Below are positions 10,602 to 15,311 of a stretch of 34,894 bases of DNA, piece after piece. Within the stretch, counting starts at the first letter, position 1, and each line of letters opens with the position of its first letter. Origin of the DNA: Paludibacter sp. (GTDB lineage Bacteria > Bacteroidota > Bacteroidia > Bacteroidales > Paludibacteraceae). Below the pieces are notes generated by a model. The model searched no databases. It was not told the DNA's origin and saw only the letters and a program-made list of their open reading frames with translations. A program made the translations under genes and the position numbers. The DNA lies in contig JAQUWU010000047.1 of assembly GCA_028692715.1 (NCBI GenBank), positions 1 to 34,894 of the forward strand, written 5' to 3'.

Positions 10602-12734
10602 ATGGAAAAAATTTACAATAATATCGCAAATAACATCCTCAAAAATGCTGAAGAATTTCTATCATCTCATTCAAATGAGACTGAAATAAATGAATCATTG
10701 TCGGGTGCTATCGAAATTATTCAAAATCTTCTATCCCTTCAATCGGAAACAGAAACCCAGAATATTGAACTACAAAATTCTCAGGAACGATTTCAAAAGG
10801 AACGTGAATTCTATCAGGATATTTTAAATAATCATCCTGCCGGTTTATATCGTATCTGTGTTTTATCACTTGAGAAATGGGGAAACAAAAGTTGGGCAAA
10901 TTCTGACAATCCACCCTATACAGTAGAATTTATGAGTGACCGTTTCTCTGAAATCTTAGAAATATCACGTAAGGAGTTTGAACAAAATTTCTTTATTATA
11001 AGCGATTTGATATTTGCTGACGATAAAGGATCTTTTGTGAAAGAAAATAAAATTGCGAATAAAAAGATCATTCCATTTCGTTGGGAAGGTCGTATAGTAG
11101 TTAATAAAAAAATAAAATGGATTCGATTAGAGTCTATCCCACAAAAACTTAATAATAATGATGTTCAATGGACCGGTATTTTATACGATTTAACGGAAAG
11201 AATAAATAATGAAGAAGAATTAAATAAAACCAGAGTTCAATTAGAAGATGTTTTAAGTGGTGCTAATATTGGAACGTTGGAGTGGAATATTCAAACCGGT
11301 AAAATAAAGTTCAATGACATTTGGGCAAAAAATCTTGGTTATTCTGTTACAGAACTCAAAATAGGATCAGTTTTATTTGGGTCAAAGGGCTGGAAAAAAC
11401 TCACTCATCCTGATGATATTGCTTACGCCGACGAAATGCTACTTCGACATTTTTCTGGAGAAATGCCCAATTATATTATTGAGGTGAGGATGCGACATAA
11501 AAAGGGACACTGGGTTTGGATGAGGCAGATGGGAAAGGTTAAAACCTGGACACAAGATGGAAAACCTCTGTTGATGTACGGAATACATACCAATATTGAC
11601 GACAGAAAAAGATCTGAAATTGAATTAAGCAATATCAATAATGAATTAGAAAAACGGGTCCAAAAACGTACCCTTGAACTTGAAACACTTAATACTGAGT
11701 TATTGCTGTCTGAACAAAAATTTAGGACAATCAGTGATTTTACCTATGACTGGGAATATTGGAAAAGCCCTGAAAATAAGATTATTTTCATGTCTCCTTC
11801 TGTTGTAAGGATTACGGGTTATTCAATCAGTGAATTTGAAAATAATCCCGGTTTATTGGATGAGATAGTTTATATAAGCGACCAGGATATTTGGAAAAAT
11901 CATATAACAAAACGCACAGAAGACACAAAAGAAGGAGACAGTGTAGAACTAACTTTCAGGATAGTAACTAAAAAAGGGGAAATTCGTTCGATTGGACATG
12001 TGTGTCGGTCAATATATGTCAATGGTATGTGTCTGGGTATAAGAGTCTCGAATAGGGATATTACAGACAAAATGAATGCTGAAAAAGAACTGCTCGCTGT
12101 TACTATTAATGTAGAAGAAAAAGAGAGAAATAGATTCTCTTCCGAATTGCACGATGGCATGGGTCCATTGTTATCGACCATAAAACTCTATTTTCAGTGG
12201 TTATCGGAGAATGAAGATAAACAGAAAAATATACTGATAACCGAGAAAGGTAATCAATGCATTGAAGCAGCTATTCAAACGGCCCGAGAGCTTTCGCGTG
12301 GATTGAGTTCACAACTTCTTGCAAAATCAGGATATGTTGTAGCAATAAAGGATTTCTGCAATCGAATTAACGATACAGGCAAAATTAAGGTTGTTTTCAA
12401 GACTAATACGAATAAAATTTTTCATCAGTTTCTGGAAATAACTTTATATCGTATTACTACTGAGTTGTTGAAAAATACAATTACCTATGCAAATGCAAGT
12501 TTAATAGAAATTGATTTTGAATTCAATAAAGATTACAATAAAGTGATTTTGACCTATTCTGATAATGGAATTGGTTTCGATTATGAAACAATAAAGAGTA
12601 GAAATACTGGACTAGGATTAATGAATATTCAACATCGGGTGCAGATTCTCAAGGGGACAATTAAGATAGAATCGAGCACTAATGATGGAATGAAGGCAAA
12701 TATACATTTTCCAATAGACGAACTAATAGACTGA
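10602..12734 (+). CDS. Soluble PAS-domain sensor histidine kinase, NarL-partner type
   Basis: A 710-residue kinase with no signal peptide and no hydrophobic membrane segment, so it senses something inside the cell. Three PAS-type regions are visible. The first is about 68-205, ending in GILYDLTERINNEEEL. The second is about 212-338, with HPDD, GHWVWMRQMGKV and YGIHTNIDDRKR. The third is about 370-492, ending in RVSNRDITDKMNAEKEL. A coiled segment (about 340-368) separates the last two. The HisKA_3 dimerisation domain carries the phospho-acceptor His517 in SSELHDGMGPLLSTI. The HATPase domain has its N-box in YRITTELLKNTITYANA, the G1 box in SDNGIGFD and the G2 box in GLGLMNIQHRV. The response regulator gene follows after 31 bp. 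The ligand is unknown; a bound cofactor cannot be recognised. Confidence 0.88.
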   Translation: MEKIYNNIANNILKNAEEFLSSHSNETEINESLSGAIEIIQNLLSLQSETETQNIELQNSQERFQKEREFYQDILNNHPAGLYRICVLSLEKWGNKSWANSDNPPYTVEFMSDRFSEILEISRKEFEQNFFIISDLIFADDKGSFVKENKIANKKIIPFRWEGRIVVNKKIKWIRLESIPQKLNNNDVQWTGILYDLTERINNEEELNKTRVQLEDVLSGANIGTLEWNIQTGKIKFNDIWAKNLGYSVTELKIGSVLFGSKGWKKLTHPDDIAYADEMLLRHFSGEMPNYIIEVRMRHKKGHWVWMRQMGKVKTWTQDGKPLLMYGIHTNIDDRKRSEIELSNINNELEKRVQKRTLELETLNTELLLSEQKFRTISDFTYDWEYWKSPENKIIFMSPSVVRITGYSISEFENNPGLLDEIVYISDQDIWKNHITKRTEDTKEGDSVELTFRIVTKKGEIRSIGHVCRSIYVNGMCLGIRVSNRDITDKMNAEKELLAVTINVEEKERNRFSSELHDGMGPLLSTIKLYFQWLSENEDKQKNILITEKGNQCIEAAIQTARELSRGLSSQLLAKSGYVVAIKDFCNRINDTGKIKVVFKTNTNKIFHQFLEITLYRITTELLKNTITYANASLIEIDFEFNKDYNKVILTYSDNGIGFDYETIKSRNTGLGLMNIQHRVQILKGTIKIESSTNDGMKANIHFPIDELID

Positions 12735-12765: not shown

Positions 12766-13422
12766 ATGAATAAAATTATTCTTGTTGATGATCATTCATT
12801 ATTTAGAGAAGGAATAAAACTATTGATTGAAAATAACGGCATGGGCGAAGTAATTGCTGAAGCCGACAATGGTAAGGTTTTTCTCGAGAAATTGAATTTG
12901 TTTAAACCCGATTTAGTCATTATGGACATTGAAATGCCTGTTATGAATGGATTGGATGCAACAAAAAAGGCTTTAGAAATATATCCTGATTTAAAAGTGT
13001 TGGTTTTGACAATGCTAAGCGACAAAGAAAATTATCAGGAAATGATTCAAGCAGGGGCAATTGGGTTTGTTCTGAAGACATCTGGTAAGAAAGAATTTGA
13101 AAAAGCTATTCAAACGGTGATGTCAGGTGAAAGTTATTTTTCTAATGATCTGTTACGTCAGATTATTTTTAATATTGATCCAAAAGCTTCAAATTCAGTT
13201 AATATCGACAAAAAAGCTTCAAAAATAAAATTTACTTTGAGGGAAAAAGAAGTTCTCATGTATTTTTGTCAGGGATTAACTGTCAGTGAAATTGCAGACA
13301 AGCTGTTTCTTAGTCCAAAAACCATTGAAACTCATCGTTCAACATTGTTAAGAAAGACAAAAGCAAAAAACACATTAAACTTAGTTCTACTTGCAATAAA
13401 AAATAAAATGGTAGAAATATAA
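12766..13422 (+). CDS. NarL/FixJ-family response regulator
   Basis: A 218-residue transcription regulator and the obvious partner of the kinase just upstream. The receiver domain (1-120) has the acidic pair Asp8-Asp9, phospho-acceptor Asp54 in VIMDIEMP, switch Thr82 in LVLTMLSD and Lys104 in FVLKTSGKKE. A linker of about 30 residues leads to a LuxR-type helix-turn-helix at about 155-215 (FTLREKEVLMYFCQGL, then SEIADKLFLSPKTIETHRST). A strong terminator follows. A receiver-only paralogue lies 1.5 kb downstream, at 14928. Probable targets by proximity are the two promoters with GGrTTTACACT repeats at 13494 and 14835; that link is inferred. Confidence 0.92.
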   Translation: MNKIILVDDHSLFREGIKLLIENNGMGEVIAEADNGKVFLEKLNLFKPDLVIMDIEMPVMNGLDATKKALEIYPDLKVLVLTMLSDKENYQEMIQAGAIGFVLKTSGKKEFEKAIQTVMSGESYFSNDLLRQIIFNIDPKASNSVNIDKKASKIKFTLREKEVLMYFCQGLTVSEIADKLFLSPKTIETHRSTLLRKTKAKNTLNLVLLAIKNKMVEI

Positions 13423-13448: not shown

Positions 13449-13486
13449 AAGCCTGTGTTCGAGAAATTGGATGCAGGCTTTTTTTT
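13449..13486 (+). terminator. Terminator of the kinase/regulator operon
   Basis: AAGCCTG (13449-13455) and CAGGCTT (13474-13480) form the stem, followed by a run of T to 13486. Confidence 0.85.
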
Positions 13487-13490
13487 GTAA

Positions 13491-13578
13491 TGGTTTACAC
13501 TGAAAAAAAATAAGGATTTACTCTCATTAAAATCAGTGTTTACACTTAAAAAATATATTTACTTAAAATATAACTTTG
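13491..13578 (+). promoter_or_regulatory. Promoter with three phased direct repeats (copy A)
   Basis: Three copies of a GGrTTTACACT-like motif have their TTTAC at 13494 (TTTACACT), 13517 (TTTACTCT) and 13539 (TTTACACT). They are 23 and 22 bp apart, about two helical turns. A TAACTTTG -7 box lies at 13571-13578, exactly 32 bp after the start of the last copy. The same layout occurs at copy B (14835-14896). It is most simply read as an operator with three sites on one DNA face for an activator. The bound regulator is not known; the upstream response regulator is the nearest candidate. Confidence 0.65.
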
Positions 13579-13589
13579 CAAAAAATATA

Positions 13590-13742
13590 GTGGAGTTGTT
13601 GGTAATATGCTTTTATCACTCTTGGACAATGTATGTTTCAACCCTTGCTTTTGGTAGAATGAAACTTTTTACCATTGGAAATGCTGCTACATTTGGAATT
13701 CCGGTAGCTGATATTTTAATGGCTGTTAATCAGGAAGTTTAA
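13590..13742 (+). CDS. Doubtful small ORF behind repeat promoter A
   Basis: An open frame ending at the TAA of 13740-13742. Possible starts after the predicted transcript start (about 13585) are GTG at 13590 (50 residues), ATG at 13629 (37) and ATG at 13659 (27). The C-terminal part reads MKLFTIGNAATFGIPVADIL and then MAVNQEV. I do not recognise a family, and no signal peptide or convincing membrane segment is clear. It may be a small protein, a leader, or the remnant of a larger gene; the transcript could equally be non-coding. The only real support is the strong promoter architecture in front of it. The stretch from 13743 to 14006 shows no gene. Confidence 0.25.
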   Translation: MELLVICFYHSWTMYVSTLAFGRMKLFTIGNAATFGIPVADILMAVNQEV

Positions 13743-14006
13743 AAGTAATTTGATTTGTTATTGTTCAGAAATATGTTAATGATAATTGTCATTTATTTCT
13801 ATATTATCTGCTATTATAAAACAACCCAAAGCTTTTATTATAATTCTACATACACTTGGGAAATATACAATCAATAAAACGGTTCAATAAGTAAAATTAA
13901 ATTGGGGAATCACCAAAGTTATAAAAGTGGAGTCCAGAAACCACATATGCAAACGGGGCGAATTCTGAAAAGCCACATGAGTAGGAAAAAATAATATATA
14001 TAAAAT

Positions 14007-14450
14007 ATGAAACTTAATTTTTCAAAAATCCTGTTGATTGTAGCTTTTGTTGTTGCATTTTCAAGTTGCACCACATTGAACACAAGTCTGAGAGAGCCAA
14101 ATGTAAGAGTAGAATTAAACAAAAGCGACTTTGTTCTTTCAGGTCAGGTTAGTGCCGAAGCCACTTCAACTACCTATTTTGGAATTGATTTTGAACGTTT
14201 GTTCACTAAAAAAACAGCAACTGTTGATGGTGCTGAGCCAATTATTAGTGTGGCAAAAGTTCCTGTTGTAGGCGAAGTGTTGGGTGACAGAACCGCAAAC
14301 TATGCTTTGTATGAAATGGTTAGTAAAAACGCCGGTTATGACGTTATTTTTTATCCAAGCTACGAGAAAAAAGTTGTAAAACCGATTCTACTTGGTATTT
14401 ATAAAATTACAACAGTGAAAGTAACAGGTAGGTTAGGAAAATTGAAATAA
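14007..14450 (+). CDS. Small lipoprotein of unknown function
   Basis: A 147-residue lipoprotein. The signal peptide MKLNFSKILLIVAFVVAFSSC places the modified Cys at residue 21. Residues TTLNTSLREPNVRVELNKSD start the mature part, a mixed sequence with a short LSGQVSAEATSTTYFGIDF segment and a closing YALYEMVSKNAGYDVIFYP followed by a short basic tail. It resembles small Bacteroidota lipoproteins with an NAGYDVIFYP-type block whose function is unknown; I cannot name the family with certainty. It sits between the two repeat-containing promoters. No clear -7 box of its own is visible, so it may belong to the transcript starting at 13585. A 59-bp inverted repeat follows its stop. Confidence 0.75.
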   Translation: MKLNFSKILLIVAFVVAFSSCTTLNTSLREPNVRVELNKSDFVLSGQVSAEATSTTYFGIDFERLFTKKTATVDGAEPIISVAKVPVVGEVLGDRTANYALYEMVSKNAGYDVIFYPSYEKKVVKPILLGIYKITTVKVTGRLGKLK

Positions 14451-14481
14451 TATTTATCTCCATAACAATTCATTGGTTCCT

Positions 14482-14540
14482 ATAAGCAGACTTATTTTGA
14501 GGCTTGGCATTAAATTAAAAGCCACTTATAAGTCTGCTAT
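14482..14540. repeat. Nested inverted repeat after the small lipoprotein gene
   Basis: ATAAGCAGACTTAT (14482-14495) is inverted as ATAAGTCTGCTAT (14528-14540) with a one-base gap. An inner pair GGCTT/AAGCC (14501-14505 and 14519-14523) stacks inside it. No T run follows, so it is a poor Rho-independent terminator but could stabilise the 3' end. The remaining gap up to the promoter at 14835 holds nothing recognisable. Confidence 0.6.
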
Positions 14541-14812
14541 GTGATAGCTAAATAGTTAGTTAAATGCTACTGAAACTGTTATTTCTAGTTGTCCTCTAAA
14601 CACAAACGTCGTATTATATTGTTTAAATTGTTGCTCTAGAAACAACAATAAGTAGTCTCAAATATTTAATGATAAGTTTTATCACAGAAGTACATTTAGG
14701 AGAATAAAATGAAAGAAAACCTAGAGCACATTGTAAATAATATTTGAAGATTCAGCGTAGATTTTAACTCGATAAAAGGGAATATCTTTTATTAAAACGG
14801 CATTTTCTATGA

Positions 14813-14896
14813 TTTTCCCTTATCATTTTCAGGGTTTACACTTATAATAATCAGGATTTACACTCACATTATTCTGGTTTTAATCCGTTACTTTTG
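14813..14896 (+). promoter_or_regulatory. Promoter with phased direct repeats (copy B)
   Basis: Two clear GGrTTTACACT motifs (TTTACACT at 14835 and 14857, 22 bp apart) are flanked by degenerate copies in the same phase, near 14813 (ATGATTTTCCCT) and 14879 (GGTTTTAATCC). A TACTTTTG -7 box lies at 14889-14896, 32 bp after the start of the 14857 copy, the same distance as in copy A. Translation of the receiver-only gene begins 32 bp after the box. Confidence 0.68.
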
Positions 14897-14927: not shown

Positions 14928-15311
14928 ATGAATAAAATTATCATTGTAGATGATCATTTATTATTTCGTGAAGGAATAAAACTCTTGATCGAAAATGAAG
15001 GTTTTGGACAAGTGATTGGAGAAGCTGAAAATGGACTTGATTTTTTGGTTTTGCTAAAAACACTTAAGCCTGATTTGGTGATTATGGATATTGAAATGCC
15101 CTATATGAATGGATTGGAAGCAACAAGTATAGCTGTAAAATCTCAACCTGATTTAAAAGTTTTGGTGCTTCGTATGATGAGTGAATATGTGAATTTAGCT
15201 GATATTAGAATTGCTGGTGCTTCAGGTTCAATTATGAAATCAGCCGGTAAAAAAGAATTAGAAAAGGCTTTTCGTGCAATTTTAAATGGTGAAAAGTATT
15301 TTTTAAATTAA
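14928..15311 (+). CDS. Receiver-only response regulator paralogue, lacking the DNA-binding domain
   Basis: A 127-residue protein aligning without gaps to the receiver domain of the regulator at 12766, starting MNKIIIVDDHLLFREGIKLL. Asp8, Asp9, phospho-acceptor Asp54 (VIMDIEMPYMNGL) and Lys104 (IMKSAGKKE) are kept. The switch Thr82 is Arg here (LVLRMMSE), which should disturb the phosphorylation-coupled switch. The chain stops right after GEKYFLN, where the full-length copy continues with its linker. No remnant of the helix-turn-helix is visible in the 250 bp downstream, so the loss looks clean. It may act as a phosphate sink or competitor for the kinase, or it may be decaying; both are inferences. 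It has its own promoter (copy B) and terminator. Confidence 0.85.
   Translation: MNKIIIVDDHLLFREGIKLLIENEGFGQVIGEAENGLDFLVLLKTLKPDLVIMDIEMPYMNGLEATSIAVKSQPDLKVLVLRMMSEYVNLADIRIAGASGSIMKSAGKKELEKAFRAILNGEKYFLN

What the first reader, a model, noticed from the sequence alone, without database searches (positions are those of the whole stretch)
13491..14896. Two promoters share phased 22-bp direct repeats at the same distance from the -7 box
Copy A has GGrTTTACACT-like motifs with TTTAC at 13494, 13517 and 13539, with TAACTTTG at 13571. Copy B has them at 14835 and 14857, plus degenerate in-phase copies near 14813 and 14879, with TACTTTTG at 14889. The offsets to the -7 box are 32 and 54 bp in both, and about 76-77 for the third. 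Two-turn spacing puts the sites on one DNA face, as expected for an activator bound in tandem next to the polymerase. I did not find this motif array at the other promoters of the window, including that of the kinase gene. Together with the adjacent response regulator it suggests a local regulon. The regulator-site link is inference.
Basis: partly seen in the sequence, partly recalled or inferred. Interest (0 to 1): 0.72.

Follow-up and report, generated by a model that had tools for sequence, protein, structure and literature searches.

The report
Tandem operator of a Paludibacter two-component regulator
Two promoters beside a sensor-kinase/regulator gene pair carry evenly spaced copies of one short DNA site at a fixed distance from the start signal, and the same arrangement recurs beside related regulators in other species, so it is very probably where that regulator binds to switch on a small set of genes.

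Summary
The two arrays are the best and second-best matches in the 4.85-Mb assembly, and the only 2 of 53 TAnnTTTG boxes in the window with two units in register. The same array, AGGGTTTACACT every 21-23 bp before TAnnTTTG, lies next to relatives of the adjacent NarL/FixJ-type response regulator: at 20 of 22 regulators of one supported clade, 0 of 29 others in the tree. From the best single unit beside each clade regulator (18 of 22 loci usable), the 14 exact TAnnTTTG boxes found all lie at 32, 53-56 or 76-79 bp. All 14 of 300 family genomes with a clade regulator have an array, against 2 of the other 286. The own genome has a third array, upstream of a secreted-protein gene. Other targets include receiver-only regulators and free-standing T9SS sorting domains. 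The layout resembles that described for BvgA (22-bp tandem dimers abutting the core promoter). Most likely it is the activating operator of the 12766 regulator. Binding, phosphorylation and transcription starts are untested.

The parts
10602..12734 (+). sensor histidine kinase (PAS domains, HisKA_3, HATPase_c)
   Evidence: Pfam
12766..13422 (+). response regulator with receiver and GerE/LuxR-type DNA-binding domain; proposed binder of the arrays
   Evidence: Pfam; clade association
13449..13480 (+). intrinsic-terminator-like hairpin after the regulator gene
13490..13501 (+). array A, distal unit ATGGTTTACACT (TTTAC at 13494)
13513..13524 (+). array A, middle unit AGGATTTACTCT (TTTAC at 13517)
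13535..13546 (+). array A, promoter-proximal unit AGTGTTTACACT (TTTAC at 13539)
13571..13578 (+). -7 box TAACTTTG of promoter A, 32 bp after the start of the proximal TTTAC
13629..13742 (+). small open frame (37 codons), first in the transcript predicted from promoter A; not shown to be a gene
   Evidence: (frame translation)
13922..13991 (+). DUF805 RNA (Rfam RF03081), just upstream of the lipoprotein-like gene
   Evidence: 77.4 bits against a gathering score of 51.1
14007..14450 (+). lipoprotein-like gene, no Pfam or NCBIfam match at E 0.001; predicted target of promoter A
14809..14820 (+). array B, weak distal unit ATGATTTTCCCT
14831..14842 (+). array B, unit AGGGTTTACACT (TTTAC at 14835)
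14853..14864 (+). array B, promoter-proximal unit AGGATTTACACT (TTTAC at 14857)
14889..14896 (+). -7 box TACTTTTG of promoter B, 32 bp after the start of the proximal TTTAC
14928..15311 (+). receiver-only response regulator (no output domain found), target of promoter B
   Evidence: Pfam

Best explanation
The arrays are the operator of the NarL/FixJ-type response regulator encoded at 12766-13422, partner of the kinase at 10602. Each 21-23-bp unit (AGGGTTTACACT, an imperfect inverted repeat) is proposed to bind one dimer. Two or three dimers sit in tandem on one face of the DNA, the last one just upstream of the core promoter (TTTAC 32 bp before TAnnTTTG), and activate transcription by touching the polymerase. 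In this genome the predicted targets are the receiver-only regulator 14928 (promoter B), a small frame plus DUF805 RNA plus lipoprotein-like gene (promoter A), and a secreted-protein gene on contig C15. Shown by sequence: the sites, phase, distance, conservation and clade association. Inferred: which protein binds, that it activates, that phosphorylation drives it, and that the receiver-only protein feeds back by competing for phosphate.
For: (1) Array adjacent to 15 of 16 clade-1 regulator genes of the genus (14 downstream, 1 upstream). Seven of the 16 were not used to make the scoring matrix; 6 of these 7 have it. (2) Units also beside 5 of 6 more distant clade members from MAGs in genome contigs (L073, L077 strongly; L078-L080 weakly). 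(3) Tree of 51 regulators: 20 of 22 in one clade (SH-aLRT 99) have arrays, 0 of 29 outside, 3 label changes against a mean of 16 in shuffles. (4) All 14 genomes with a clade-1 regulator have an array at E<=1e-3; 2 of the other 286 do (same settings). The 8 genomes with only the paralogous regulator have none at that level. The 4 regulator-bearing genomes that gave no array to the model (G148, G200, G201, G202) score 5.8e-8 to 1.5e-4. (5) Best single unit beside each of 22 clade regulators, 18 with at most 2 mismatches: the 14 exact TAnnTTTG boxes within 10-99 bp all lie at 32, 53-56 or 76-79 bp; 4 of the 18 have no exact box. (6) Pattern search by units alone: 5 of 5 hits in the genus have the box at 32 (one with 1 mismatch), 0 of 2 outside it do. 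(7) Nine off-site arrays at E<=1e-3 (G000 C15; G140 C40, C57; G178 C244, C164; G188 C188, C99, C109, C122), all in genomes with the regulator. The secreted proteins behind G000 C15 and G140 C40 are 75% identical. (8) The recognition helix differs consistently from that of the sister paralogues.
Against: No binding or expression data. Adjacency alone would make array and regulator co-occur; only the off-site arrays argue for action in trans. Two clade members lack a clear array (G188a, L076). Model R1 finds no strong match in the more distant loci L073 and L077-L080 (best E there 0.034, elsewhere in L073), so their arrays rest on the pair scan. One paralogue outside the clade, L209, has an upstream pair as strong as those of L078-L080 (13.1) and was counted as no array. 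G185, of another genus, has a perfect 22-bp pair but a box at 24, not 32, and no clade-1 regulator. Three other genomes of the order have borderline matches, not followed. The inverted repeat fails at pairs 3-10 and 6-7. G200, G188b, L077 and L080 have no exact TAnnTTTG in phase. Lack of a -33 TTTG is not distinctive against controls. In the C15 case the array ends about 540 bp before the gene. The own assembly is 5.34% contaminated, so C15 could belong to another organism.
Confidence: 0.8

Rival explanations
1. The arrays are operators of a different regulator, for example a LytTR-type protein, whose sites are direct repeats of about 21-22 bp (recalled, no call), and the NarL-type regulator is only a linked gene or itself a target.
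For: Period of 21-23 bp and direct orientation; in G188b the array lies upstream of the regulator gene itself, so the regulator can be a target.
Against: The array follows one clade of the NarL-type regulator and not its paralogues. Of the 34 genus genomes without the clade, only G194 has a strong array, and that one is cut by a contig end where the regulator would be. The regulator next to the array has a GerE domain, not LytTR. LytTR genes elsewhere in the genome were not searched.
Confidence: 0.1
2. The regulator binds the arrays to repress, not to activate, or does either depending on phosphorylation.
For: The proximal unit lies next to the place of the -33 element, where a bound protein could also block the polymerase.
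Against: The fixed phase between units and box is typical of activators that contact polymerase (established knowledge). In the 32 arrays tabulated the proximal unit starts 31-33 bp before the box by construction, 26 of them at 32, so a unit on the -7 box was not looked for there. 0 of 13 array promoters have an exact -33 TTTG, though controls rarely do either (2 of 56).
Confidence: 0.15
3. The repeats are chance or a decayed duplication with no function.
For: AT-rich intergenic DNA; A and B may be related by duplication, since the nearest relative G178 has a single array between regulator and receiver-only gene.
Against: Best two places in the genome; conserved in distance and phase next to regulators 57-75% identical, while the spacers differ.
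Confidence: 0.02

Closest known systems
BvgA at the fha and ptx promoters of Bordetella (a response regulator; membership of the NarL/FixJ family recalled); passages of PMC7250471 seen
   Same: The passages describe head-to-head dimers with centres 22 bp apart, all on one DNA face, the most promoter-proximal abutting the -35 region, a strong site furthest upstream at fha and weaker ones downstream. Here: units 21-23 bp apart, the proximal one just upstream of the core promoter and often weaker than the best upstream one (20 of 29 arrays).
   Different: Different motif (AGGGTTTACACT against TAAGAAATTTCCTA at fha), different phylum and promoter type (TAnnTTTG); no demonstrated dimers, cooperativity or phosphate dependence.
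VraR, NarL, DevR, EvgA (solved regulators with the same two domains)
   Same: Near full-length sequence matches to the 12766 protein: VraR 6.2e-33, NarL 3.6e-23, DevR 1.6e-22, EvgA 9.9e-22.
   Different: VraR is nearest, but no NCBIfam equivalog among the 25 shown reaches its cut-off, so it is not named an orthologue of any of them.
PorX/PorY regulation of type IX secretion (listing and starts of abstracts only)
   Same: A Bacteroidota two-component system connected with T9SS; here several genes behind arrays encode T9SS sorting domains.
   Different: The regulator here is a GerE-type DNA-binding protein; PorX was not compared by any search, and no functional link to T9SS was tested.

Membership tests
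NarL/FixJ (GerE output) response regulators | receiver domain plus GerE/LuxR-type helix-turn-helix | tested here: met
   Response_reg 93.2 bits, GerE 56.4 bits
NarL/FixJ (GerE output) response regulators | HisKA_3-type kinase encoded next to it | tested here: met
   HisKA_3 26.6 bits (cut-off 24) and HATPase_c in 10602-12734
BvgA-like tandem-dimer operator (as architecture) | sites about 22 bp apart (two turns), in phase, last one abutting the core promoter | tested here: met
   spacings 21-23; boxes at 32, 53-56, 76-79 bp from the best unit
BvgA-like tandem-dimer operator (as architecture) | each site an inverted repeat bound by a head-to-head dimer | tested here: inconclusive
   four of six base pairs of the 12-mer are mostly complementary (34-52 of 64 units); pairs 3-10 and 6-7 are not (11 and 3 of 64)
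BvgA-like tandem-dimer operator (as architecture) | cooperative, phosphorylation-dependent binding and activation | not testable with these tools
   needs purified protein and reporter assays
Bacteroidota sigma-ABfr promoter | -7 box TAnnTTTG | tested here: met
   13571 and 14889; also at most related arrays
Bacteroidota sigma-ABfr promoter | -33 TTTG | tested here: not met
   0 of 13 array promoters have it exactly, but only 2 of 56 control boxes do; a passage of PMC7366714 says it could not be identified in Flavobacterium johnsoniae
LytTR-type direct-repeat operator | LytTR-domain regulator at the locus | tested here: not met
   both regulators of the locus lack LytTR; the rest of the genome was not searched for LytTR

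The most novel reading that the evidence does not exclude
The kinase/regulator pair is a dedicated surveillance circuit for protein export in Paludibacter and relatives. Through this tandem operator it switches on secreted proteins together with two small brakes: a receiver-only protein that drains phosphate, and a free-standing T9SS sorting domain without a signal peptide that stays in the cell and reports or buffers the state of the type IX secretion route.
Probability: 0.12. Interest if true: 0.75.

Novelty: new member of a known kind. Interest (0 to 1): 0.5.

Why it matters
It gives a binding motif, promoter geometry and target list for a two-component regulator clade; the listings (held library only; 1, 1, 15 of 145 and 8 of 1,589 papers shown) named no paper on such an operator. 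It suggests that the tandem, two-turn activator layout known from BvgA recurs with Bacteroidota-type promoters. The geometry is rigid enough to be used as a regulon finder, and it ties a two-component system to receiver-only regulators and lone T9SS sorting domains, which makes feedback and secretion-sensing ideas directly testable.

Tried and rejected
Single-unit search: weak evidence on its own (43 against 32.7 expected). The -33 element as a sign of activator dependence: absent at array promoters but nearly as rare at controls, so not used. DUF805 RNA as part of the system: rejected as a core part. It occurs once in the own genome, with the lipoprotein-like gene in G166, which has neither a clade-1 regulator nor an array at the thresholds used, and in none of 14 regions around regulator relatives of the genus. 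A fold of that RNA stretch on its own was no better than shuffles. A tblastn for a sorting-domain remnant in the window found nothing at E 1e-3. The sigma-70-type promoter scan is not informative for this phylum. Of 33 loci from genome contigs given to model R1, only L074 (the G176 contig) matched strongly. Literature: no paper on DUF805 RNA (0 papers each).

Circularity to keep in mind: model R1 and the scoring matrix come from 11 arrays (A2). L065 was in A1 and dropped because it aligned one base off; L066 was computed but left out of A1 and A2. Held-out loci are named in the report. One search uses a consensus string and no box, but the consensus came from these arrays. Shuffles keep base composition only. 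anchors boxes picked by eye for 16 of 32 rows and tries offsets 31-33 only, so its count (26 at 32, 4 at 33, 2 at 31) is descriptive. Array labels in the tree are mine: L076 (score 9.1) and L209 (13.1, upstream) were set to 'none', L078-L080 (11-13) to 'array'; not all regulators were put in the tree.

Full report
OBSERVATION. The sequence is as described. Array A: TTTAC at 13494, 13517 and 13539 (steps 23 and 22), TAACTTTG at 13571. Array B: TTTAC at 14835 and 14857 (step 22), TACTTTTG at 14889. In both, the proximal TTTAC is 32 bp and the next one 54 bp before the box. In the 4,849,215-base assembly the two-unit pattern with up to 3 mismatches has 6 places, 4 of them in these arrays, with 0 for the reversed pattern. 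In the window 53 exact TAnnTTTG boxes exist on both strands, and only these two have two units in register (0 and 2 mismatches; next best 8).

SETTING. The order on the + strand is: kinase 10602-12734; regulator 12766-13422 with receiver and GerE domains; terminator-like hairpin 13449-13480; array A; a 37-codon frame; DUF805 RNA 13922-13991; lipoprotein-like gene 14007-14450; array B; receiver-only regulator 14928-15311. The genus is probably Paludibacter: one congeneric genome in the collection, G001, has a single contig of 3,685,504 bases, the length reported for P. propionicigenes WB4 (passages of PMC3072083).

THE ARRAY IN OTHER SPECIES. A search of 200 family genomes by units alone, with no box in the pattern (2 mismatches), gave 7 places. 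The 5 in the genus (2 in this genome, one each in G140, G178 and G188) have TAnnTTTG at exactly 32 bp (one with 1 mismatch); the 2 outside do not. Around regulator relatives of the genus (loci) the array recurs, mostly between the regulator gene and the next gene. With a matrix made from 11 arrays, 15 of 16 clade-1 regulator loci of the genus have an adjacent array (14 downstream, 1 upstream; G188a has none). Seven of the 16 loci gave nothing to the matrix (L054, L055, L061, L063, L064, L065, L066): six of them reach the smallest p possible with 200 composition shuffles, the seventh is G188a. Among 6 clade members from genome contigs, L073 and L077 have strong pairs, L078-L080 weak ones (scores 11-13) and L076 none that I count; model R1 does not find these. 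Regulators outside the clade have no downstream pair of that strength; L209 has an upstream pair scoring 13.1, and the second regulator of L078 shares the array that lies between the two.

A TEST THAT DOES NOT USE THE BOX. For each of 22 clade regulators I took only the best single unit within 450 bases and listed exact TAnnTTTG boxes 10-99 bp downstream. In 18 the unit had at most 2 mismatches. These gave 14 boxes, one per locus: one at 32, six at 53-56, seven at 76-79, none elsewhere; 4 loci (G200, G188b, L077, L080) had none. This is the phase of one, two or three units of 21-23 bp before the box. Where the distance is longer than 32, a weaker unit often stands in the expected place.

WHICH REGULATOR. 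In a tree of 51 regulators, one clade (SH-aLRT 99) of 22 holds all 20 labelled with arrays; 0 of 29 outside have the label; 3 label changes are needed against a mean of 16 in 500 shuffles. In 300 family genomes, model R1 (sequence only) hits 16 at E<=1e-3. Clade-1 regulators (57% identity or more) are in 14 genomes of a search with the same settings, all among those 16. The other two are G194, whose array lies at the very end of a contig and is followed by the same small sorting-domain gene as in its relatives, and G185, another genus, whose pair has its box at 24 bp. The 8 genus genomes that hold only the paralogous regulator (G034, G144, G166, G190, G206, G210, G212, G213) have none at that level. 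Ten of the 14 genomes gave arrays to R1; the four that did not (G148, G200, G201, G202) score 5.8e-8 to 1.5e-4, each next to the regulator. In 392 other genomes drawn from the order, 3 borderline hits (E 1.5e-4 to 9.7e-4) were found and not followed. In the recognition helix, clade members read mostly KT(I/V)E(A/T/S)HR or close variants, the sister paralogues mostly KTVK(S/T)H(K/R).

TARGETS. In this genome there are 3 strong arrays: B (8.4e-13), A (5.0e-7) and contig C15:2152-2227 (2.6e-5); the next is 0.03. The C15 array stands about 540 bp upstream of a gene for a 143-residue protein, 75% identical to the one behind the G140 C40 array, which matches Pfam Lcl_C. In between, the C15 leader shows a stop-ridden stretch with a 33-residue sorting-domain match (E 2.9e-5), apparently a decayed gene. 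Off-site arrays at E<=1e-3 number nine, in G000, G140, G178 and G188, all genomes with the regulator; G188 has four of them. Beside regulators the next gene is a receiver-only regulator (window B, G178, G140, L073, L079), or a free-standing T9SS sorting domain of about 85-100 residues with no signal peptide visible by eye (G176, G192, G202, G208a, G152, G061, G194; farther downstream in G148 and G001), followed in G176, G192 and G202 by a receiver-only regulator. Two of these proteins were scanned and match TIGR04183 and PF18962; the others were recognised by tblastn. Other genes behind arrays are, by eye, a secreted protein (G200) and a polysaccharide-export-like pair (G188 C99); by search, a protein with a sorting-domain match at its end (G140 C57) and a Thiol_cytolysin-domain protein (G208b).

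MECHANISM. The unit AGGGTTTACACT is an imperfect inverted repeat: of 64 units, pairs 1-12, 2-11, 4-9 and 5-8 are complementary in 42, 52, 34 and 41, but pairs 3-10 and 6-7 in only 11 and 3. This suits one dimer per unit without proving it. A two-turn period, a last site just upstream of the core promoter, and a proximal unit often weaker than the best one upstream (20 of 29 arrays) match what is described for BvgA: head-to-head dimers 22 bp apart on one DNA face with the last abutting the -35 region (passages of PMC7250471). I therefore infer activation by tandem dimers. An exact -33 TTTG is absent from all 13 array promoters examined, but 54 of 56 control boxes lack it too. Promoter B would raise a receiver-only relative of the regulator, which may act as a phosphate sink (inference). 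In the window's copy the residue aligned with the regulator's threonine in LVLTMLS is arginine, so it may accept phosphate without switching (inference from established knowledge).

HISTORY OF THE LOCUS. The nearest relative, G178, has a single array between regulator and receiver-only gene. In this genome the lipoprotein gene with its DUF805 RNA sits between two arrays. The same RNA-plus-gene unit occurs in G166, without clade-1 regulator or array at the thresholds used. It was probably inserted here and came under the regulator's control (inference).

VERDICT. The finding is real, non-random and conserved across species. It is best read as the operator of a NarL/FixJ-type regulator, a new member of a known kind of regulatory system. 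The protein-DNA link remains to be shown at the bench.

Noticed in passing
13922-13991; L242:1957-2025 (-): DUF805 RNA (RF03081) directly upstream of the lipoprotein-like gene; the same RNA-gene pair occurs in G166. The gene has no Pfam or NCBIfam match and is found in 3 of 48 genus genomes.
   Followed up: partly
L056:4250-4507, L057:4111-4371, L058:4340-4597, L059:2640-2909, L060:3969-4280, L062:3849-4148, L064:4251-4508, L066:6139-6411, L190:3284-3544: Free-standing T9SS sorting domains without a visible signal peptide, near the two-component genes and behind the array. Why a cell would make a sorting domain alone is unexplained.
   Followed up: partly
L189:1613-2150 (G000 contig C15, - strand): Between the third array and the secreted-protein gene lies a stop-ridden stretch resembling a sorting-domain gene (33-residue match, E 2.9e-5), apparently decayed.
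   Followed up: partly
14928-15311: Receiver-only regulator whose residue aligned with the regulator's threonine (LVLTMLS) is arginine, while the aligned relatives in G178 and G140 keep threonine.
   Followed up: no
13629-13742: 37-codon open frame first in the transcript predicted from promoter A; no relative sought.
   Followed up: no
L223:154-204 (G185): Perfect 22-bp pair AGGGTTTGCACT in another genus with a TACTTTTG box 24 bp after the start of the second TTTGC and no related regulator in the 4 kb read: a possible second architecture.
   Followed up: partly
L225 (G000 contig C10, 175000-187500): A paralogous kinase/regulator cluster with three regulator genes in the same genome, without this array.
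   Followed up: partly
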